Numbered from the stretch's first letter, positions 2,409-13,622 are shown. The stretch is DNA of 64,000 bases from Fibrobacter sp. UWB13 (GCF_900177805.1 NZ_FXAX01000001.1:1860001-1924000); one strand, 5' to 3'. Notes: generated by a model not told the origin, from the sequence alone. Program-made: numbers and translations.

Positions 2409-2996
2409 TTACCTAACGGGGATATCGATATCGAGCGTCTCCATCCCGTCGCGAGCCTGCACACGCGCAAGCATCACATTAGACTTCGGGTGCCCGTAAA
2501 CAGGGACAACCATCAAATTAGACACGCCTCTCTGTTCACTCGGAACCGCTTCGGTATCGTAAGCTGTTTTCGTAAATATAGGTTTCTTACCGCCATCGTA
2601 AAGGGAGTAAGTCAGCTTACGCGGGAATCCTTTCTTGATTTGCGAAGTCTTGACCTGGAAATAGATGTATCCGCCCTGCGGAACTGCTCTTAAGCTATCT
2701 CTAATTTCTTGTTCGGTGGCGTATTCCGCTTCCATGGCAAGGCGAACGTTCTTGCGCACACGATCCGGAGATTCATATTCCACCATCACATTGAACTTGG
2801 CATCTTCAGGGATGGCGCTCTCACGCACATCACGGATTCTACTGTTATTCTGGTGATATTCCCAACGACCATTGTCGTGTAAAATAACGGTCGAGCCGTT
2901 AGAAGCCATTGCGACAACATCTTCAGCGAAGACATTTGCGGCAATCGCAAAGACAAGAGCCATGCAGGCTCTCGAAAGATTTTTCATTCCACCCAT
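2409..2996 (-). CDS. Secreted/periplasmic protein of unknown function
   Basis: About 195 residues. After MGGMKNLSRACMALVFAIA a signal peptide ends near NVFAED. The mature part has a short N-terminal motif (MASNGSTVILHDNGRWEY) found in small periplasmic proteins with an SH3-like or DUF3157-like opening, then a beta-rich domain without enzyme motifs that I recognise. The start is set at 2996 because ACGGAG lies 5 nt upstream; an in-frame ATG at 3020 has a weaker site and would put charged residues before the signal peptide. It is upstream of the DnaQ-like gene with a 6-bp gap. Function unknown. Confidence 0.7.
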   Translation of the reverse strand: MGGMKNLSRACMALVFAIAANVFAEDVVAMASNGSTVILHDNGRWEYHQNNSRIRDVRESAIPEDAKFNVMVEYESPDRVRKNVRLAMEAEYATEQEIRDSLRAVPQGGYIYFQVKTSQIKKGFPRKLTYSLYDGGKKPIFTKTAYDTEAVPSEQRGVSNLMVVPVYGHPKSNVMLARVQARDGMETLDIDIPVR

Positions 2997-3158
2997 AAGT
3001 ACTCCGTTTTTATAAAACATCCCTTTACCTATGAGTAATATATATCACAAAATCGATTTTATCGAAAAAAACAAAATATTTGTGAAAATTCATAAAAAAA
3101 ATGTGAGTTATGTAACAATTTTAAAACTTATTTTTGTACCGAAACCTAAATTTGCACC

Positions 3159-4019
3159 ATGTCCGGAAAAATTCGATTTGCACCAAGCCCCACAGGATAC
3201 CTTCACGAAGGCCATTTGCTTTCGGCACTTTATGTGTGGGCAGCGGCAAAAAAATGGAACTTAAAGATCCACTTGCGAATCGAAGACCATGACCAAAGCC
3301 GCGCACGACCCGCCTATATTGCTGGCATCCGAGAAGATTTGGCTTGGCTTGGGTTTAAATACGATTCCGAGAGCATACAAAGTGCACGCGGACAAGTCTA
3401 CGAAGCGGCCCTCCAAAAGTTAAAAGAAAAATCGTTAGTTTACCCGTGCTATTGCAGTCGCAAGCAGCTCCTCGCCGAAAACCCGCAAAGCGAAACCGGT
3501 GAAATCATTTACCAAGGGAAGTGTTTGCACGAAACGCGCGTCATCCCGCTCCCTCACAACCTCCGCTTTATTGTCCCGAATAAGTTTATTGACTGGCACG
3601 ACCTGCGTCTAGGGGACTTTCACGAAAACCCGAAACTCCAATGCGGAGACTTCCCCATCCGCGACCGCGACAACCAATGGACATACCAGTTCGCCGTCTG
3701 CGTAGACGACATCGACGAGCAAATCACGCACATCGTCCGTGGCGAAGACATTCGCAATTCCACCGCCCGCCAGATTGCGCTCATGGAAGCTCTAGGACGC
3801 ACAGAGCGTCCCATCTACCTGCACCACCCGCTCATCGTAGACGCGAACAACAAGAAGCTTTCCAAGCGCGAACTCGCCCACAGCCTACGCCAAGATAAAG
3901 AAGCGGGAATCACGCCCGAGATGCTTTTCGGACGCGTCTGTTACAAGGCTCACCTGACTGAAAACGACACACCCATAGCCCTCGTTGACGCGATATCCAT
4001 AATTATGGAAACTCTCTAG
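3159..4019 (+). CDS. gluQ: Glutamyl-Q tRNA(Asp) synthetase
   Basis: A 286-aa class I aminoacyl-tRNA synthetase fragment related to GluRS. It has FAPSPTGYLHEGH with the HIGH-type motif at 16-19, the RIEDHDQSRA segment, and KLSKR at 233-237. The zinc site is Cys97-X-Cys99, Tyr118 and Cys122. It lacks the C-terminal anticodon-binding domain of full GluRS, the hallmark of GluQ-RS (YadB). The family activates glutamate without tRNA and attaches it to queuosine at position 34 of tRNA(Asp). The length fits the family (about 290-310). Divergent from the 2409 gene across an AT-rich spacer. A truncated GluRS is unlikely because the zinc motif and spacing match GluQ-RS. Confidence 0.92.
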   Translation: MSGKIRFAPSPTGYLHEGHLLSALYVWAAAKKWNLKIHLRIEDHDQSRARPAYIAGIREDLAWLGFKYDSESIQSARGQVYEAALQKLKEKSLVYPCYCSRKQLLAENPQSETGEIIYQGKCLHETRVIPLPHNLRFIVPNKFIDWHDLRLGDFHENPKLQCGDFPIRDRDNQWTYQFAVCVDDIDEQITHIVRGEDIRNSTARQIALMEALGRTERPIYLHHPLIVDANNKKLSKRELAHSLRQDKEAGITPEMLFGRVCYKAHLTENDTPIALVDAISIIMETL

Positions 4020-4054: not shown

Positions 4055-7000
4055 ATGGCATCAACGTCCGTGTCCGCAACCATTGAAAAAATTCGTGAAG
4101 AGGCATCAGTCTTTGAAAGCAAAGACCGCTTGCTCTGTTTTTCGCAAAAAAATAAATTCCAGTCCCCACTGCTTTTAGGCAATGGCGACCAGTTTTTTGA
4201 AACATGGCAAAACGAGCCCTCCCCACGCGCGTTTTCACAATTCTTCCCCATCTCTGCAAAATACGATGAGGAAAAGCAAGCCGCCGACCTCGACAAGTTC
4301 CGCAAGGTTCTCAAAGCAAAGACCGAAGACTTTTGCAACCAGGACTTGTACATCGCAACGGGATTCATCAAGTGGGGCGAAAAGAGCCTCGCTCCAGCGA
4401 TCCTCATCCCGCTCGACTACGACGCTGAACACGACACGGTCGCCATTTCGGCACGCGCCCCAATAGAAAATATTGCTCTCTCGACACTTGATAAAGAAAT
4501 CAAGTTCCCTGTAGCACTTGACTTTTTCAAGAACGGGACTTTTGCCATCCAGAAATTTTTTGACGCCCTCGAAAAAAAGATAGCGTCCAAAGCCGATTGG
4601 AAATTTACACGTAACGGCTACTGCGTCACGTTCTACAGCACCAACAGACTTCTCCTCAAAAAGAAACTGGCGAATGAATGCTGGACAACCGCCAAAGCCG
4701 CCAACCACGATTTCTTCATCGCAACGATAGGCAATGAAGGCTTCATGCCGCAGCCATCGCTCTTTGAAGAAATCCCCTACGACCACGTTTACAGCCCTGC
4801 GGATCATTACTTCCCGTACACGACTGATTCGCAGACAAACAAAGCGGTTATCGACGCGCTCAATCCAAAATGTTCCGCCTTTGCCATACAAGCACTCCCC
4901 GGATCAGAAAAAGCAAAGGCAGCTGTCAACATCACCGCAGACCTTATCCAGCAAAAGAAAAAAGTTTGTGTGGTAAGCCGCCGTGCCATTTCCAAGCTCA
5001 ATTTTGAAAGCGCCTGGAAACCGCCATTCCGTTCGTTCCAAGGTCCTGACCGCGACACGCTTCAAACGCAGTTGAGCGAAACAAGGGCAAAGCTCGTCTC
5101 CTATTACGACGCCGTCAATTTTCCGCTCAAGCCCAGTGACGCTAAACTCACAGAACTGCTCGACGAAATTGCAAAGTTAAGACCTGTCAAGACAAAGTTT
5201 GCTAGCGACCTTTTCGAGAATATCGAAGACGTTCGCTATAAAAAGTTCAAGTCCATGCTCTCTAGCCTGGAACAAATGGAACAGCTGTTCTTCAACGAAA
5301 ACGGCATCGAAATTTACAACGCCTTTGAAGGGGTTACACGACCAGCCGCATCGCAAGAGCGCAAGAACCTGATTGGCGAAGACTTGATTCAGGCTAAAGC
5401 TCTTGTCGAAACAATCAAGCCTTTTGTCGCAAGCATCAACAAATCCAAGCTCTATCTGGATGGATTCAAGCTTTCTGACATTTTAGAACTTGTCTCTATT
5501 TTCAAGAAAAACTTTGACAAGGAAATGCCCGGCTTCGAAGATTGGGACCTCCATTCAAACGGATGGATTGCCTACCAGGACGATCTCAACGACTTGCCAA
5601 ACGCAGGCGCCCGCTGGTCCAGCTACCGTCGCAAGGGTTCCGACATCTTTACCGACGACGCCATCGAAGCAAACGTCCTTGCCGCACGCAAAGAATTTGA
5701 ACAAAGTTTGAGTTCCGCCCTCAAGGCGCTCTCGGACCATTACCGCAGACCCAAGCGTCAACTGCTCAGCGTATTCAAGGATCCCAAGAGCATCACCTCC
5801 GATAACATGCTCATGGAGCAAATCGATAAGCTTATCGAAATGCAGGAATACAAGCGCAAGTACACGGATTCTTCTGTACTCGCCGCCCGACTGTTCGGCA
5901 AAGACTGGAAATACGAAAAGACCGACTGGAAAGATTTGGCAGACAAGATTCGCCATTACTACGTGTTCCGCGCACACATCAAGAATAGCGAACAACACGA
6001 CTACTTGTTGCAATTGCTTTCCAAATGGCACTTGTTCAAACAATTCGCCGAAAGTCTGGACAAGATACAAATCAGCGCTCAAGAACTGCAAAAGAAGCTC
6101 CAGAGCATCAGCAAGTCTTTCAACTTGAGCGAATCGATGGATACTCAAACGGTCGACTCCTGGATTGACAAGATTGAACGCTGGTCTACATATTGGGATT
6201 CGCAAGACATTTATTTGCAACTTTGCGAGCACATCGAAAACATCTGCGATTCGCCCTGTGAAAACTTGGCACAATTTGTAAAGAGTTCCAAGAACGCAAG
6301 CAAAGACCTCGCCATGGCATTTGCACGCGCCTGGACGAACCGCCAAATGCAAGCCGCCTCTGCAGAATGCCCGGAATTGTTCAGCCCTTCCGCAAAGAAC
6401 AGGAAGCAGCAGGGCAAGCAATACAGAACCCTTTTGGACCAGTTCTGCAATGCTAACTTTAGAGAATCTCACGATTCCGTTGAAAAGAATCCCGACTTGC
6501 TCCGTAGTTTCAAGCTATCGCAAACTTACGAACAAGATTTCGATTCATTCGACGTTACGTTATTCCTAGATGCCGACTGCATGACCATCGCCGAAGCGAT
6601 GCCTGGAATTTTAAACTCAAAGAAGATTATCCTCTTTGGCAATCCTTGTGCGCCCACGCTCGAAATGCTCCCGATGGATGCCTGCAATATGGAAACCTCT
6701 TCGCAATCCATATTCTTCAAGGACAACGTTCTTTCGGCTGCACTGCGCAAGGGAATCCCCACACGCGTCATCGGCTACACAATGCAATATGCAGACCCGT
6801 CGTTATTCAGTTTCGCCAATAGCAGAATCTACAATAACGAAATGGCGCAGTTCCCGAACAGCAATTTGCCAACAGCCAAATTGCAGTCGCTCAAAATCGT
6901 TCGCGATAAGATTTTATCCATCGCCGAAAAGGCGGTGCAACATGCGACAAAGAACCCAAGCCAGACACTTGGGATTCTCGCCTCAAACCAATCTCTTTGC

Positions 7001-8137
7001 AACGAAATTGAAGAAGCCATCCAGAACCTTCTGAAGAAGTTCCCGAACGCATCGAGATTCTTTACGCAAGGGAATCTTACAAACAAGTTCTATATAAAGA
7101 CGATTGAACGCGCTATAGACTTGTACCGCGACGTCATCTTCGTCTGTGTCGACATTGATAACATGACAAGCATCGCCGGAGCATGCAAGCTTTCGATTTG
7201 CACAACACTTGCAAAACAGAGCCTGAGCCTGTTCATGACGAACGAAGATGCCGACAAGTTCGCCAATGCCAAGCTGAATCTTTTCCAAGAATGGGTCAGC
7301 TCGTTAAAGAGCAAAACGACAGCAGAAAACACCATTGCATACGTCCAAAGTTCTGTTCTCGACGAACAAATTAAAGAAGTTTTCAAAAACGAATCCATAG
7401 CCTACAAGGACTATATCGCTCAAGGCGATATTCCTATAGGTCCGGTCGTCATCGATGCAAACAACTCCAAGCGTTTTCTCGCCGTTATCGAGACCGATTG
7501 CAATTGCGCACCGTTCAAGGAATCCATCGAAGACCGCGAATACACGCGCCCGAACACTCTTTCGAGACTCGGCTGGAAGGTCCTCAACATGTGGCTCCCG
7601 CTATGGAACATCTCGAATGCAGACGAAAAGGAAAACTTGATTGCCACTATTGCGATTGAGCAAAGTGTCGCACCGCCACCGCAAGAAGACATTCCTCTCG
7701 ACGAAGCAGAACCGCACACCGAAGCCAAAATCGAACCGTACTGCGTCAAGCATCCGGCGATGACAGAAGCAAGCAGCAAGCCCATTACGGAGCTTTCGAT
7801 GGACACGATTATCGAAGAGCTCAAGTTCTATGTCGATAGCGAAACGCCCATCCATGGCGAGCTTTTGTTGCAGAGGCTTTTAGAGAGGCACCACGTCGAA
7901 CGTACTAGTACCAAGATAAACACCATCCTAAGTGAAGCGATCAAGCTTGCACTGCACCAGAAGCAGTTTATCAAGACGGGGCCGTTCTTCTACTCGCTCA
8001 CGAACAAGAATGTGGTGTTGCGCGACCGTTCCGGTAGACCCGACAGCGAACGCAAGATGGCTTACGTGCCTCCCGAGGAACGCGCCCTCCTGAAGCTCGA
8101 CGACCACAGCATCAAGCAAATGCTAGGCGTGCTGTAG
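4055..8137 (+). CDS. Giant DUF4011/DUF3320-type helicase-nuclease relative with degenerate ATPase motifs
   Basis: A 1360-aa protein whose order matches the DUF4011 - superfamily 1 helicase - endonuclease - DUF3320 architecture. Residues about 260-310 read TDSQTNKAVIDAL then ALPGSEKAKA, then KKKVCVVSRRAISKL, aligning with the Q motif, Walker A (GPPGTGKS) and motif Ia of that family. Walker A at 280-287 keeps Gly283 and Lys286 but has Ala, Glu and Ala at the other key positions. Motif II aligns at 832-841 (FDVTLFLDAD) without the DE pair. Residues about 1129-1186 (FLAVIETD ... LGWKVLNMW) resemble the restriction-endonuclease-like domain, and 1247-1330 resemble DUF3320. Long coiled-coil-like segments fill 340-800. 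It starts 35 bp after gluQ on the same strand. Probably no ATP-driven helicase activity; role unknown. Confidence 0.65.
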   Translation: MASTSVSATIEKIREEASVFESKDRLLCFSQKNKFQSPLLLGNGDQFFETWQNEPSPRAFSQFFPISAKYDEEKQAADLDKFRKVLKAKTEDFCNQDLYIATGFIKWGEKSLAPAILIPLDYDAEHDTVAISARAPIENIALSTLDKEIKFPVALDFFKNGTFAIQKFFDALEKKIASKADWKFTRNGYCVTFYSTNRLLLKKKLANECWTTAKAANHDFFIATIGNEGFMPQPSLFEEIPYDHVYSPADHYFPYTTDSQTNKAVIDALNPKCSAFAIQALPGSEKAKAAVNITADLIQQKKKVCVVSRRAISKLNFESAWKPPFRSFQGPDRDTLQTQLSETRAKLVSYYDAVNFPLKPSDAKLTELLDEIAKLRPVKTKFASDLFENIEDVRYKKFKSMLSSLEQMEQLFFNENGIEIYNAFEGVTRPAASQERKNLIGEDLIQAKALVETIKPFVASINKSKLYLDGFKLSDILELVSIFKKNFDKEMPGFEDWDLHSNGWIAYQDDLNDLPNAGARWSSYRRKGSDIFTDDAIEANVLAARKEFEQSLSSALKALSDHYRRPKRQLLSVFKDPKSITSDNMLMEQIDKLIEMQEYKRKYTDSSVLAARLFGKDWKYEKTDWKDLADKIRHYYVFRAHIKNSEQHDYLLQLLSKWHLFKQFAESLDKIQISAQELQKKLQSISKSFNLSESMDTQTVDSWIDKIERWSTYWDSQDIYLQLCEHIENICDSPCENLAQFVKSSKNASKDLAMAFARAWTNRQMQAASAECPELFSPSAKNRKQQGKQYRTLLDQFCNANFRESHDSVEKNPDLLRSFKLSQTYEQDFDSFDVTLFLDADCMTIAEAMPGILNSKKIILFGNPCAPTLEMLPMDACNMETSSQSIFFKDNVLSAALRKGIPTRVIGYTMQYADPSLFSFANSRIYNNEMAQFPNSNLPTAKLQSLKIVRDKILSIAEKAVQHATKNPSQTLGILASNQSLCNEIEEAIQNLLKKFPNASRFFTQGNLTNKFYIKTIERAIDLYRDVIFVCVDIDNMTSIAGACKLSICTTLAKQSLSLFMTNEDADKFANAKLNLFQEWVSSLKSKTTAENTIAYVQSSVLDEQIKEVFKNESIAYKDYIAQGDIPIGPVVIDANNSKRFLAVIETDCNCAPFKESIEDREYTRPNTLSRLGWKVLNMWLPLWNISNADEKENLIATIAIEQSVAPPPQEDIPLDEAEPHTEAKIEPYCVKHPAMTEASSKPITELSMDTIIEELKFYVDSETPIHGELLLQRLLERHHVERTSTKINTILSEAIKLALHQKQFIKTGPFFYSLTNKNVVLRDRSGRPDSERKMAYVPPEERALLKLDDHSIKQMLGVL

Positions 8138-8184: not shown

Positions 8185-8211
8185 AAGGCAAGAATGTATA
8201 AATACAAAACA

Positions 8212-8235
8212 AGAGCAGGCGGAGCCTGCTCTTTG
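8212..8235. terminator. Intrinsic terminator between convergent genes
   Basis: Perfect 9-bp stem AGAGCAGGC (8212-8220) / GCCTGCTCT (8224-8232) with a GGA loop; T-rich on the plus side and, on the minus side, followed by TGTTTTGT. It probably serves both the helicase-like gene and the SPOR gene. Confidence 0.7.
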
Positions 8236-8721: not shown

Positions 8722-11700
8722 TTATTCATTCGCAAGTGGAGGGAGGCTGCCAACTTCATTGGCGTTGTGACGGACACCCCACATTTCAGACTTTTCAAGC
8801 TTGTTCTTCTTGCCATACTTATCAAGCTGAACGAAAGTCTTGACCTTGGAGATGTAAGCACCGGAACCCACCATGCGGTTATCGTTGGACTTCATGTTCC
8901 AAACAAGGACGATGTTTCTACGATTCTTGACGCAGTTGCCACCGAAGAGGTCCTTGTCGTTGCAGTACACACGACCCTTCTGATTTGCGACAACGCCACC
9001 CAAGTTCGTGAAGAGCTGGAATTCGTAGTCGAAGTAGATATTGGCGAGATCTGCATCGGCGAATTCTTCCTTAGATTCCTTCAAGGCACCCATATCGCTC
9101 TTGACAAACCAGCCATGCGGAATATAACCATATGCATCATAGCCAGCACCACCAGCGCGGATATCCTTTCTGAAGTCATTTTCGTTCTTGTTAGCATCGT
9201 AGGTCATCACCGTGAACACCGGGAGTTTTTCGATTTCAGCCGGAGTATGGTTCGTCGGAATACCGCCCTTAGCACTCGGAATGAGTCTTACGATATAAGA
9301 GCTAACGTCACCAGTAATCAAGGCCCAAGGAGACGGGAGACGGTCCGTAGCATCGTAGCCAGGAGCAACGTTCCAGTTATGGGTTGCATCTTCAGCCGGG
9401 CGGAGAGTATCAGCACCAGGAGCAGAAGCGTAATCAGACTGGTCAGCAATCAAGCCTTCGCCATTCAAGCTTCTGAAGTGGATGTAGTCACCTGCCTGCG
9501 GGAATACAGCAGAACTCTGGCTATAACGGAGGTTCTGAGTTTCAAGATACTGTTCACCGTAGCTGATGTTTTCATCGACATCGATAAATTCTTCGTAATG
9601 ACGAGTCTTGCCGTTGTTGATGAAGAACGAGAACACCTTGTCACCTTCTGCAACACCTGCAGTGGTCTTCCTAACCGGTTCAGAGAAGCGAACCTTCAGT
9701 TCAACATTCTTACCCGATTCGCCAGCCATAGCAAGTGCAGAGACGATCACCGGAGCAATACGGTCGTAAATATCTTTTTTGAAAGCAGTCGTAATAGGAT
9801 CGCTTGTCGGAGTAGGCCTGTAGGTAGCCCAGGACCTAATTTGACCAATACCGCCAGTCTTTATGTCCTTGGAGAGGTTCTTGCCACCAAGCTTGATGAC
9901 CGGTTCGCAATAATCCGGTTCGACATTTGCGGTATTGCAAGCTGCACCAGCTGCGATTTCATCCTTTTCAAAGACCACGGAATCCGTTTCATTTTCCCAG
10001 AAGACTTCAATCTTATTCGGGAGAGAGTCCTTATGGAACGGACGATGGTAGTAAGCAACGAGGGAGTCACCGATACCATCAAGGTATTCCTTAGCCGGGT
10101 CAAAGTACGGAGATTCGATATTCATCGCCATGTCAGAGACCTTACCATGAACGTCGTAAATGTCGGCAAACTGTAATACAGGAACCTTCGGTTCTATGAA
10201 CTGCAAGTTCGTGTAGAGAGCATGCACATTACCAGCACCAGCGAGGCTTACATCAAGCGTAGCAAACTTCGGACTCTCATAAACCTGAGAAGATGTAACC
10301 ACAACTTTACCACGGCCATTAATAATTTCACCGCTGACCATATCAAGACCGGCAGAAGTTTCACCGCCCTGAGCGAGCATAAAGTTGCAGTCTTCTCCAC
10401 AGGGGGTATCATCAGGATTTAGAGCTAAGACATAAAACATTTCCGGAGACCCCTTCACACGCGTTGTGTCCGACCGGTCAGAGGAAATGATGTTCGTCGA
10501 AGTCGGGCCGTCCACAAAGACGAGCTGCGGCACGAAGAACTTGACCTTAGCGGCACGAGTGCTACCCACCACGTTCACAGAGACAGAGTCTTCCAACTTT
10601 GTACCCATGGAGCGAGCGAGGATCGTCACATAGACCGTATCGATACCATCATTCACTTCACGAGATGCACCCGGATTAGCAATCTGGGAAAGCTTGCCAT
10701 TCTTCATTTCGTAGAAGACGGCATTAGCATTAGAAGAGCTCAAAGAGTAGCTACCTGTAGAGGCTTGCATTTCGAGAGGATCAGTGCAATCAGGAGTGGT
10801 GCAAGGATCGCGGAGACCGGCAATGTAGAGCGGAACGAGCTGGTCGACGTCCACAGCGCCATCCTTCGGAACAGCAGCCATCTTGCGTTCGATAAATTCA
10901 TACGGGAGGCTATGGTTGCCAACATCGTCCACAACGACAGCGGTACGATTCGCAACACCAAGCTGACCGACAACATCAACCGTAATAGCCTTGAAATCAT
11001 TACCAATGCGGATGATCAAATAGTACGTGTCAGCAGGAAGGAAGTTCTTCAACACATCCTTATTGACAATCGGATCATACGAAGTGGACACATTTATGCC
11101 ATAATTCTTGCCGTCAAAATACTGTTTCGGATTGGCTTTTAAATCATCAACAGTAAGAACAACCTTGGTCGGATCCTGTCCGGTCGGGTCTTTGGTAAGT
11201 TCATAGTTAATTTCCATACCAGCGAGTTCCGCACCGCACATCGTCTTGTCACCACCAGCCGGATCTACTTCAGCAGCGCAGTTGCTTGCACTAGATTTCT
11301 TGTAGCAAATAGAGTAGTGCTGGTTACCATTATCAATGTAATCCGCATGGGCTTCACCCTTATTGTTCTTCTTATCAGTAATGCCTGTGGTCTGCTGGAT
11401 GTACATGTTTGTCTTGATATGGACGTTACTCATCGTCGTACGACGGTCGCAGAAGTAGATATCGATCTCATAGTTGGAACCAACATCGGCATCCGGCATG
11501 AACTTATCCAAGTCAACGTAACCCGGAGCGGCAAGGTGAGTACCACCAAGGTCCACAGCGAGCTTGTTATCAATAAAGACCCAAATGTCATCGTCACCAC
11601 GGAAACTGAACTTCAAGCCCTTCTTGAAGCGGAAGCTTGCATGAGATTCAAAGCAGAAGTGCTGGTTACGGCCACCCTTCGTAAGAACTTCGGAATCGCT

Positions 11701-13437
11701 AGCACCAGAAGTCCAACGAGGAACACCACCTGTAGGAACCTGATTCTTTTCGACAAGCTTGCCAGCAACAGTTTCAGTTCCTTCCTTAAAATAGGTCCAG
11801 CCGAGAGGTCCCATATTCGGGCAACCCCAACCCCAGCCGTCACCTTCCCAGGTCACGCCGAGCTTCTTCGTAATTTGAGCAGCGTCAGGAGTATCCTTGA
11901 ATTCTTCACCAGCAGCAAAGAGACCTTCGCAGTCAATACCGCCATCCCAACCCGGGCCATTGCAAATGAGGTCACTCATAGCAACACCTTCAGTCGCATG
12001 AATAGTACGGAGACCATCCGGAGACTTAGAAAGCTGGTTATTATAGTCAGCGCAGAAGAAAATCGGACCTTCAGCCTTGCGCTTGTTTTCAGCAGCAGCC
12101 AAACGGGCAGAGAGCATCACCGGTCTTTCACCCGGAGTCATGCCAGAATCCAGAGGAGGTTCTTCGGCAGGATAGAAGCCACCCACCACCGGAGCACCCG
12201 GGCTCTGGTAGGTATCGGATTCAAATTCAAACTTACCGTCAGAAACCTGATTAAAGGTCATGTTAAAGCAGTACTTTTCGTTCACGCCCGGGGTGTAGTT
12301 AAACATAGCCGTGAAAGCTTCTTCTGCCTGAGCACCAAAGCAGCTCTTACCCTTAGTAGTAAGCACCATTTTCTTTCTGCCTGTGGTAGCATCCCTTTGC
12401 AAAGTGCTTTCCACCATGCCCTTAGTCACACCGATACACGGAACTTCGCCACCAGCAGAAGCAACCTGATACTTAGCAGACGCAGTATAGCAAGCGTTAG
12501 CATGAGCCTGAGCAGGAGTCTGTCCAGGAGCCCAGTCCGGGTTGCAGGTAAATGCACCATGCAAAGAAGCGTCGGTATCGTAAATCAAAGCGGCCAAATC
12601 GTAGCTGCACTTGCCAACAACATTCGGGCGGGTGTCGTACCAACCCATTTCATCACTCGGGAGCTTAGTAGCTTCATCAGGGTCAGCCACAAAGAAAAGT
12701 TCATCAGAATCAAAGAGAGCGAACATGCCTTCCAAACCGATCGGTTCAGCAGCGGTGCCTTCAACCTGCCAGCCACCATCCTTACCGATAGCTTCCTTCA
12801 CTTCCGTATCATCATCGCGACGGATAAGGACCTTGGACGGGAGAGCTTCATCAATATAGCGTCTAAAATACCAACCGCACTGTTCGTCAAGTTCCAATTC
12901 ATGGTCCTTGCCATCTTCAACAAGCAGCGGAATAGCACTCTTCCACGTTTCATTATTCGGCAAGAATACGTAGAAATACTTGACGTCAGGAGGAGTCTTG
13001 CTCATGTAGGTGATGTTAGCCTTGTTCGGATCCGGATGAGCGGAGATCCACAATTCACCTGCAGAACCGAAATCGGAGCAAGTAAAAGCAGTAGCGCTGT
13101 TATCGCTTATCTGCAAATACTTGACGTTCATCGAGTCTTTTCTTGCGCAATGACCGCTATTACAGTCATTAGCACCGGTTTCTTCAATGACAAAGCCCTT
13201 AGCTGAGTTCGGACCGCCGATTTTAGAGGCGCTAACTTGGAGCCAGTTAGCAAAGGTGCTCTTTTCAAATTCAGCCTTTTGTCCACCGGCAACAGCATAA
13301 GCAGATGTCCAACCTTCGGGCAGCTTGAAATAAACAGTGCCCTCACAAGCCAATGCAGCAAAAGCACTCTGCGCACCGGCAAAGAGCATTATACAGCCCA
13401 ATACCCACCATTTTAAGGAGTTGATTCTGTTATTCAT
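8722..13437 (-). CDS. Large secreted fibro-slime family protein (adhesin-like)
   Basis: 1571 aa from the chosen ATG at 13437 (GGAAAG lies 6 nt upstream; in-frame starts at 13452 and 13479 would only lengthen the N-terminus). A signal peptide ends near AQSAFA. About residues 480-700 are the fibro-slime domain: FCADYNNQLSKSPDGLRT, GWGCPNMGPLGWTYF, HFCFESHASFRF, FRGDDDIWVFIDNKLAVDLG, then IYFCDRR. The Cys pairs and the GDDDIWVFI core are diagnostic; the fold is PA14-like. Beta-sandwich regions follow, and a C-terminal VLVWNMKSNDNRMVGSGAYI resembles the FlgD-type Ig strand used as a sorting or stalk module. Family members in Fibrobacter are linked to cellulose adhesion. Single-gene unit, with a terminator behind it and an operator-like region in front. 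Confidence 0.85.
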   Translation of the reverse strand: MNNRINSLKWWVLGCIMLFAGAQSAFAALACEGTVYFKLPEGWTSAYAVAGGQKAEFEKSTFANWLQVSASKIGGPNSAKGFVIEETGANDCNSGHCARKDSMNVKYLQISDNSATAFTCSDFGSAGELWISAHPDPNKANITYMSKTPPDVKYFYVFLPNNETWKSAIPLLVEDGKDHELELDEQCGWYFRRYIDEALPSKVLIRRDDDTEVKEAIGKDGGWQVEGTAAEPIGLEGMFALFDSDELFFVADPDEATKLPSDEMGWYDTRPNVVGKCSYDLAALIYDTDASLHGAFTCNPDWAPGQTPAQAHANACYTASAKYQVASAGGEVPCIGVTKGMVESTLQRDATTGRKKMVLTTKGKSCFGAQAEEAFTAMFNYTPGVNEKYCFNMTFNQVSDGKFEFESDTYQSPGAPVVGGFYPAEEPPLDSGMTPGERPVMLSARLAAAENKRKAEGPIFFCADYNNQLSKSPDGLRTIHATEGVAMSDLICNGPGWDGGIDCEGLFAAGEEFKDTPDAAQITKKLGVTWEGDGWGWGCPNMGPLGWTYFKEGTETVAGKLVEKNQVPTGGVPRWTSGASDSEVLTKGGRNQHFCFESHASFRFKKGLKFSFRGDDDIWVFIDNKLAVDLGGTHLAAPGYVDLDKFMPDADVGSNYEIDIYFCDRRTTMSNVHIKTNMYIQQTTGITDKKNNKGEAHADYIDNGNQHYSICYKKSSASNCAAEVDPAGGDKTMCGAELAGMEINYELTKDPTGQDPTKVVLTVDDLKANPKQYFDGKNYGINVSTSYDPIVNKDVLKNFLPADTYYLIIRIGNDFKAITVDVVGQLGVANRTAVVVDDVGNHSLPYEFIERKMAAVPKDGAVDVDQLVPLYIAGLRDPCTTPDCTDPLEMQASTGSYSLSSSNANAVFYEMKNGKLSQIANPGASREVNDGIDTVYVTILARSMGTKLEDSVSVNVVGSTRAAKVKFFVPQLVFVDGPTSTNIISSDRSDTTRVKGSPEMFYVLALNPDDTPCGEDCNFMLAQGGETSAGLDMVSGEIINGRGKVVVTSSQVYESPKFATLDVSLAGAGNVHALYTNLQFIEPKVPVLQFADIYDVHGKVSDMAMNIESPYFDPAKEYLDGIGDSLVAYYHRPFHKDSLPNKIEVFWENETDSVVFEKDEIAAGAACNTANVEPDYCEPVIKLGGKNLSKDIKTGGIGQIRSWATYRPTPTSDPITTAFKKDIYDRIAPVIVSALAMAGESGKNVELKVRFSEPVRKTTAGVAEGDKVFSFFINNGKTRHYEEFIDVDENISYGEQYLETQNLRYSQSSAVFPQAGDYIHFRSLNGEGLIADQSDYASAPGADTLRPAEDATHNWNVAPGYDATDRLPSPWALITGDVSSYIVRLIPSAKGGIPTNHTPAEIEKLPVFTVMTYDANKNENDFRKDIRAGGAGYDAYGYIPHGWFVKSDMGALKESKEEFADADLANIYFDYEFQLFTNLGGVVANQKGRVYCNDKDLFGGNCVKNRRNIVLVWNMKSNDNRMVGSGAYISKVKTFVQLDKYGKKNKLEKSEMWGVRHNANEVGSLPPLANE

Positions 13438-13622
13438 TGTTTTTCTTTCCATTTTCGGTTCTCTCTGACCGCGTTGCACATCAAGAAGAACAGCCTCCTC
13501 GATATACTACACCGAAACGAAATCTACTTTTTTAAATAAAAAAACGGAATTTTTTCTTTTAAATCCATGTGAAAAAAAATTTATATAAGGAAATCCACAG
13601 CTCTATTCACAAACTTTCAACA

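What the first reader, a model, noticed from the sequence alone, without database searches (positions are those of the whole stretch)
4055..8137. Giant helicase-nuclease relative that has lost its ATPase motifs
The domain order (Q-like motif, Walker A position, motif Ia, motif II, REase-like domain, DUF3320) is that of DUF4011 proteins, a family with members implicated in phage defence. Here Walker A reads ALPGSEKA and motif II FLDAD, so ATP hydrolysis is unlikely, yet the 1360-codon frame is intact. A decayed but maintained scaffold could be a regulator, an inhibitor or a DNA-binding part of another complex. It sits next to gluQ, not in a defence island.
Basis: partly seen in the sequence, partly recalled or inferred. 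Interest (0 to 1): 0.6.

Follow-up and report, generated by a model that had tools for sequence, protein, structure and literature searches.

The report
Dead helicase-nuclease kept by Fibrobacter
Next to the gene gluQ, gut fibre-degrading Fibrobacter bacteria and their close relatives keep a giant protein that descends from phage-defence DNA-cutting helicases but has lost the residues needed to burn ATP and, probably, to cut DNA; because natural selection still preserves it in nearly every species, it has probably been turned into a structural or nucleic-acid-binding part with an unknown everyday job.

Summary
Window 4055-8137 (+) encodes an intact 1360-aa relative of the DUF4011/PDC-S37/ProA helicase-nucleases. 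An AlphaFold model of residues 240-1360 is a clear SF1 helicase fold, followed by a Vsr-like nuclease fold and a winged helix. It is not local decay. Orthologues of the same length occur in 93 of 111 genomes of the family (78 of 80 in the genus; 7 genera), and in 86 distinct sequences motif II never has D or E at the canonical positions, motif VI never has its Arg, and the first nuclease Asp is always gone. The gene is single copy, directly downstream of gluQ in 119 of 123 loci, and under purifying selection (dN/dS 0.07-0.12). It maps to one clade: one gain, one loss. All 66 loci from a scan of ~85,000 species genomes are Fibrobacteraceae. Intact DUF4011 paralogues occur in only 3 of 111 genomes, so it is not an inhibitor that needs one; RecBCD is complete, so it does not replace RecC. 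Best reading: a domesticated, doubly inactivated helicase-nuclease used as a nucleic-acid-binding scaffold, as RecC and AddB are. Binding and partner are inferred, not shown. Defence-gene finders will probably miscall it.

The parts
3159..4019 (+). gluQ (glutamyl-Q tRNA(Asp) synthetase), the conserved upstream neighbour, 35 nt before the giant gene; probably the same transcription unit
   Evidence: tRNA-synt_1c 2.7e-49; directly upstream and codirectional in 119 of 123 loci, most gaps 18-86 nt; no terminator-like site between the two genes
4055..8137 (+). Whole coding sequence, 1360 aa: doubly inactivated SF1 helicase / Vsr-like nuclease protein of the PDC-S37/DUF4011 kind
4055..4804 (+). N-terminal DUF4011-like region (residues 1-250)
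   Evidence: weak DUF4011 match at 66-128; 1.5e-10 in the g16 orthologue; SMUBP-2 profile match over alignment positions 175-313, which run on into the RecA1 lobe
4805..5089 (+). RecA-like lobe 1, first part (residues 251-345): Walker A position A-L-P-G-S-E-K-A; motif Ia with fixed R/K-R/K at residues 309-310
   Evidence: 86-sequence motif table; charge reversal E to R/K at 309 in 82 of 86
5090..6454 (+). All-helical insert (residues 346-800); its middle, residues 481-640, is among the most conserved parts of the clade
   Evidence: best PDC-S37 stretch 332-799; low-entropy blocks and near-invariant columns; helices with pLDDT mostly 85-93
6455..7339 (+). RecA-like lobe 1 end and lobe 2 (residues 801-1095): motif II L-D-A-D, motifs III-VI degenerate, only 'RD' of motif V kept
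   Evidence: SF1 fold
7340..7729 (+). Vsr-like (MTES_1575) nuclease domain (residues 1096-1225), first catalytic Asp lost, E1146 and D1148 kept
   Evidence: MTES_1575 matched in 29 of 29 members; Z 8.2-10.0 to NGO0050, I-Bth0305I and Vsr; D1129 0 of 86
7730..8134 (+). DUF3320 winged-helix region and conserved C-terminal tail (residues 1226-1360)
   Evidence: DUF3320 in 28 of 29 members; winged-helix matches, Z 6-7
8211..8233 (.). Terminator-like hairpin after the gene (10 pairs, T-rich on either side)
   Evidence: consensus scan only, number of sites not above chance

Best explanation
A PDC-S37/DUF4011-type anti-phage helicase-nuclease entered, or was fixed, downstream of gluQ in the ancestor of the crown Fibrobacteraceae, lost ATPase and (probably) nuclease chemistry, and was domesticated. 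It now works as a non-catalytic scaffold. The helicase fold, with a fixed pair of basic residues in the strand-contacting motif Ia, and the winged-helix C-terminus probably hold or recognise nucleic acid, while the conserved helical insert (residues 481-640) and C-terminal tail probably dock a partner, much as the dead helicase/nuclease-like folds of RecC and AddB scan DNA for an active partner. SHOWN here: the fold (by prediction), the loss of catalytic residues across the clade, the vertical core-gene inheritance, the purifying selection and the gluQ linkage. INFERRED: the domestication history, nucleic-acid binding, the existence and identity of a partner, and the housekeeping rather than defence role.
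For: Family membership by sequence: PDC-S37 8e-104 in this protein and 9e-161 in the g16 orthologue. AlphaFold pLDDT 85.5 for residues 240-1360; SF1 fold Z 18-20; AddAB is the top Foldseek hit by E-value, 3.8e-8, though with a low TM-score (0.2). Catalysis lost in 86 of 86 distinct orthologues: motif II Asp 0, Glu 0; motif VI Arg 0; nuclease first Asp 0. Intact DUF4011 relatives match the AAA_11/AAA_12 helicase models strongly, whereas this protein matches none. 93 of 111 family genomes carry it, single copy. GyrB tree: one gain and one loss. Same neighbourhood across genera. dN/dS 0.07-0.12 over the whole gene. More than 120 columns are at least 95% conserved across 7 genera, many of them not the canonical family's residues, above all in the insert and C-terminus: new constraint, not decay. 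Motif Ia charge reversal in 82 of 86. Precedent: RecC and AddB inactivated helicase/nuclease folds act as ssDNA scanner and hoop (PMC4824097, PMC1185551).
Against: No binding or expression data. Overall pI is about 6 and the nuclease domain is acidic, which does not suggest strong non-specific nucleic-acid binding. E1146 and D1148 of the nuclease are invariant, so residual or migrated metal chemistry cannot be excluded. One genus-g17 genome (G164) keeps gluQ but has lost the gene, so it is not strictly essential. No partner was found. No AddB- or RecC-specific feature such as the ionic latch was tested.
Confidence: 0.5

Rival explanations
1. It still serves phage defence, without catalysis: a fixed sensor that binds phage nucleic acid or proteins and signals or blocks by steric means.
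For: Its family is defence-linked: PADLOC PDC-S37 and Hhe, NCBIfam antiphage_ProA. Inactive folds can act as receptors.
Against: It is a core, vertically inherited, single-copy gene at one fixed housekeeping locus in 7 genera, with strong purifying selection, which is unlike the patchy, mobile distribution of defence genes. In contrast, the intact paralogues are present in 3 of 111 genomes.
Confidence: 0.15
2. It is a purely protein-protein scaffold or regulator (for example of a core DNA or RNA enzyme) and no longer touches nucleic acid.
For: The most conserved parts are the helical insert (481-640), the nuclease-fold core and the C-terminal tail rather than the helicase core. Basicity is low.
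Against: Motif Ia gained a fixed basic pair, 'RD' of motif V is invariant (85 of 85), and the winged helix is retained.
Confidence: 0.18
3. It has kept or re-evolved chemistry with migrated residues (Asp 839 and the following acidic residue, Lys 286; E1146 and D1148).
For: An acidic residue remains at 839 in 86 of 86, Lys 286 in 68 of 86, and E1146/D1148 are invariant in 84 of 84. Migrated catalytic residues are known in other pseudoenzymes (PMC10211241).
Against: Walker A Lys followed by Ser/Thr is absent in 83 of 86; motif II Asp and Glu, the motif VI Arg and the first nuclease Asp are absent in all 86, and the motif IV Arg is kept in one.
Confidence: 0.07
4. It is a dominant-negative regulator of an active DUF4011 paralogue.
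For: The window's genome also carries an intact 1955-aa paralogue.
Against: Only 3 of 111 family genomes have a strong DUF4011 paralogue, while 93 keep the dead gene.
Confidence: 0.03
5. It acts with GluQ on tRNA(Asp) or translation.
For: The gluQ linkage is nearly universal. The Vsr-like domain also resembles RAP-domain and mitoribosomal proteins.
Against: g13 keeps the gene without gluQ, and G164 keeps gluQ without the gene. Intact family members also show weak RAP similarity, so it is not a special feature here.
Confidence: 0.07

Closest known systems
PADLOC PDC-S37 (candidate single-gene phage defence) and its intact members in Fibrobacter (G128 C2, 1534 aa; G000 C1, 1955 aa)
   Same: Same domain order and length class; E 8e-104 to 9e-161 for the inactive clade; insert domain of the same length, about 450 residues
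   Different: Intact members keep GPPGTGKS, DEAS, the motif VI Arg and the nuclease Asp and are sporadic; the clade here has lost all of these, has about 26 and 80 fewer residues in the RecA1 and lobe-2 regions, and is a fixed core gene
NCBIfam antiphage_ProA (NF058533) and Hhe_antiphage (NF042953)
   Same: Local similarity in the insert and lobe 2 (195 and 57 bits)
   Different: Far below the equivalog cut-offs (1500 and 2000 bits)
[quoted passage not shown] PMC3710099)
   Same: SF1 helicase, Vsr-like nuclease and winged helix in the same order
   Different: No HEPN or transglutaminase part; catalytic residues lost
RecC and AddB (inactivated SF1 helicase and, in RecC, inactivated PD-(D/E)XK folds used as DNA scanner or hoop)
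   Same: Same logic: helicase-like and nuclease-like folds without motifs, kept as non-catalytic parts; AddAB is the top Foldseek hit
   Different: Different nuclease branch (Vsr-like), different lineage, no recB-type partner gene alongside; the genome has its own complete recC-recB-recD

Membership tests
SF1 helicase | Two RecA-like lobes of SF1 topology | tested here: met
   AlphaFold model pLDDT 85.5; Z 18-20 to UvrD, UPF1, IGHMBP2 and others over about 290-335 residues
SF1 helicase | Catalytic motifs: Walker A GK(S/T), motif II DE, motif VI Arg | tested here: not met
   Motif II D 0 and E 0 of 86; motif VI Arg 0 of 86; K followed by S/T 3 of 86
DUF4011 (PF13195) | Match over the Pfam gathering score | tested here: inconclusive
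   18.8 vs 22.2 bits for this protein; most orthologues with a listed match are over the cut-off, e.g. 41.7 in g16
MTES_1575 (PF18741) | Match over the gathering score; Vsr-like fold | tested here: met
   This protein 26.6 vs 38.2, but 57.3 in the g16 orthologue, and the model of the domain matches Vsr-type nucleases at Z 8-10
MTES_1575 (PF18741) | First catalytic Asp of the nuclease | tested here: not met
   0 of 86 have Asp, 1 has Glu
PADLOC PDC-S37 | Profile similarity over most of the protein | tested here: met
   E 8.2e-104, three stretches; 10 of 10 members of A2. PADLOC's own score thresholds were not available
PDC-S37 as an active defence system | Active ATPase and nuclease, sporadic distribution, shown anti-phage effect | tested here: not met
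   Motifs lost and core-gene distribution; the anti-phage effect itself was not testable here
antiphage_ProA (NF058533) | Equivalog cut-off 1500 bits | tested here: not met
   195 bits
Hhe_antiphage (NF042953) | Equivalog cut-off 2000 bits | tested here: not met
   57 bits
RecC/AddB | Adjacent recB/addA-type partner; fills the RecC/AddB slot of the genome | tested here: not met
   Neighbours are gluQ and unrelated genes; a separate complete recC-recB-recD operon exists
RecC/AddB-like mode of action | Dead helicase/nuclease fold binds nucleic acid for an active partner | not testable with these tools
   Needs biochemistry

The most novel reading that the evidence does not exclude
An independent instance, outside the RecC/AddB lineage, of a complete helicase-nuclease turned into a non-catalytic nucleic-acid reader, here recruited from a phage-defence family to become a core cellular component of a whole bacterial clade.
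Probability: 0.4. Interest if true: 0.72.

Novelty: new variant of a known kind. Interest (0 to 1): 0.52.

Why it matters
It looks like a clear case of a defence enzyme becoming a core gene after losing its catalysis, and it gives a testable protein in a major rumen cellulose degrader (Fibrobacter succinogenes, F. intestinalis). It also warns that profile-based defence finders (PADLOC PDC-S37, E 1e-104) would probably count a catalytically dead core gene as phage defence in nearly every Fibrobacter genome. If it binds nucleic acid for a partner, it adds a second evolutionary route to the RecC/AddB type of scanner.

Tried and rejected
Local decay or pseudogene: rejected; 86 distinct orthologues, nearly all 1345-1381 aa, dN/dS about 0.1. 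The few interrupted copies are in draft genomes: cut by contig ends, one TAG (G106) or one split frame (G107). Inhibitor of an active paralogue: disfavoured by co-occurrence. RecC replacement: the genome has recC-recB-recD. Obligate GluQ partner: disfavoured by g13 and G164. RNA-binding RAP domain: 9 of 29 members match weakly (best 7e-4), but intact family members match too (0.006-0.012), so it is a property of the Vsr-like fold and not evidence for RNA here. Phage origin: no relative in viral contigs; structural matches to viral helicases only reflect the SF1 fold. phmmer of the single protein against PDB found nothing useful; the family profile found SMUBP-2 at 1e-6. A first GyrB tree had one row translated in the wrong frame and was replaced. 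Literature: no paper on a degenerate DUF4011 protein or on PDC-S37 was found in the held library.

Full report
1. Observation. The frame 4055-8137 (+) is an intact 1360-codon ORF. Pfam finds, in order, DUF4011 (residues 66-128), MTES_1575 nuclease (1115-1199) and DUF3320 (1260-1288), each below its cut-off in this divergent protein, but no helicase model. PADLOC's PDC-S37 matches at 8e-104, and NCBIfam antiphage_ProA at 1.5e-57, far under its equivalog cut-off. The quoted motif strings are correct.

2. Conservation of the altered motifs. In 25 genomes of the genus (own one included) the gene is present, of constant length and 41-83% identical to the window's where whole. A family-wide profile search finds it in 93 of 111 genomes: 78 of 80 in the genus (the two without it are only 65% and 71% complete) and 15 in six further genera (two weaker hits, in G085 and G164, are other proteins). 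In 86 distinct orthologues, motif II never has the canonical Asp or Glu (Leu in 85, Asp in 86 of 86), Walker A Lys is followed by Ser/Thr in only 3, motif IV Arg is kept in 1, motif VI Arg in none, and the first nuclease Asp in none. In contrast, seven intact relatives from Fibrobacter, Haloferax and proteobacterial plasmids are invariant at these positions. The nuclease E1146 and D1148 are kept in all, so loss of nuclease activity is likely but less certain than loss of ATPase.

3. Fold. AlphaFold of residues 240-1360 with 29 orthologues gives pLDDT 85.5. VIA-align Z is 18-20 to UvrD, UPF1, IGHMBP2 and nsp13 over about 290-335 residues; AddAB heads the Foldseek list by E-value, with a low TM-score. 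The C-terminal part modelled alone matches Vsr-type nucleases (NGO0050 Z 10.0, I-Bth0305I Z 9.7, Vsr Z 8.2) and, more weakly, winged helices (Z 6-7).

4. Evolution. The gene is in one GyrB clade (genera g1, g11, g12, g13, g15, g16, g17), absent from g8, g9, g10 and g14, and lost once (G164): two changes on the tree. A scan of one genome each from ~85,000 species returned 66 loci, all named Fibrobacter or another Fibrobacteres/Fibrobacteraceae name; viral contigs gave none. That scan used peptide patterns from the conserved C-terminus, so a distant relative elsewhere could have been missed. gluQ lies directly upstream on the same strand in 119 of 123 loci, mostly 18-86 nt away, within a conserved block nagZ, exonuclease, unknown gene, gluQ, this gene, SPOR-like gene, fibro-slime gene; some loci come from the same genome fetched twice. 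dN/dS is 0.07-0.12 against eight relatives (dS is near saturation in several pairs). Many near-invariant columns in the helical insert (481-640) and the C-terminus are special to this clade. These facts show function under selection, not slow death.

5. What it does. Shown by sequence: a stable, vertically inherited protein without the residues of an ATPase. Inferred: a non-catalytic scaffold. Two dead helicase folds, RecC and AddB, work as ssDNA scanners, and the dead nuclease domain of RecC as a hoop for DNA (PMC4824097, PMC1185551); this protein has the same kind of parts. Retained 'RD' of motif V and a Glu to Arg/Lys reversal in motif Ia (82 of 86) fit nucleic-acid binding; the low pI does not add to it. 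A defence role is less likely because of the core distribution. A role tied to GluQ is less likely because each gene exists without the other. An inhibitor of intact DUF4011 proteins is unlikely because only 3 of 111 genomes have one. RecC replacement is excluded by the intact recC-recB-recD operon.

6. Comparison and novelty. By descent it belongs with PDC-S37/DUF4011 proteins; by defining activity it is not a member of the active defence families, and it fails the ProA and Hhe equivalog cut-offs. It is a new variant: a clade-wide, doubly inactivated, domesticated branch. No description of it was found in the held papers; subscription literature could not be checked.

Noticed in passing
L075:6131-11998 (own genome G000 C1, about 648-654 kb): The same genome carries an intact 1955-aa PDC-S37/DUF4011 protein with GPPGTGKS and DEAS; together with G006 and G128 it is one of only three such copies among 111 family genomes.
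   Followed up: partly
L074:1495-5211 (G128): The intact 1534-aa PDC-S37 copy of G128 sits beside an ORF that looks like an adenine methylase/restriction protein and an ATPase-like ORF, a defence-like neighbourhood, unlike the gluQ locus.
   Followed up: no
L248 (G164, genus g17): This genome keeps gluQ (56% identical) but has lost the giant gene at the locus, the only clear loss in the clade; it would be the natural negative control.
   Followed up: partly
G159 (g13) and G160 (g14): Both near-complete genomes lack gluQ; g13 keeps the giant gene without it, next to the 2409-3020 homologue.
   Followed up: partly
window 8722-13479 (-): A 1585-aa fibro-slime-type surface protein lies beyond the terminator-like hairpin; homologues keep this place in most genomes but diverge fast (about 28-66% identity within the genus).
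   Followed up: no
L106/L107 Walker A region (genus g17): Both g17 orthologues read PGTD(G/N)GKT, a GKT two residues out of register with the canonical P-loop; chance or a shifted P-loop is undecided.
   Followed up: no
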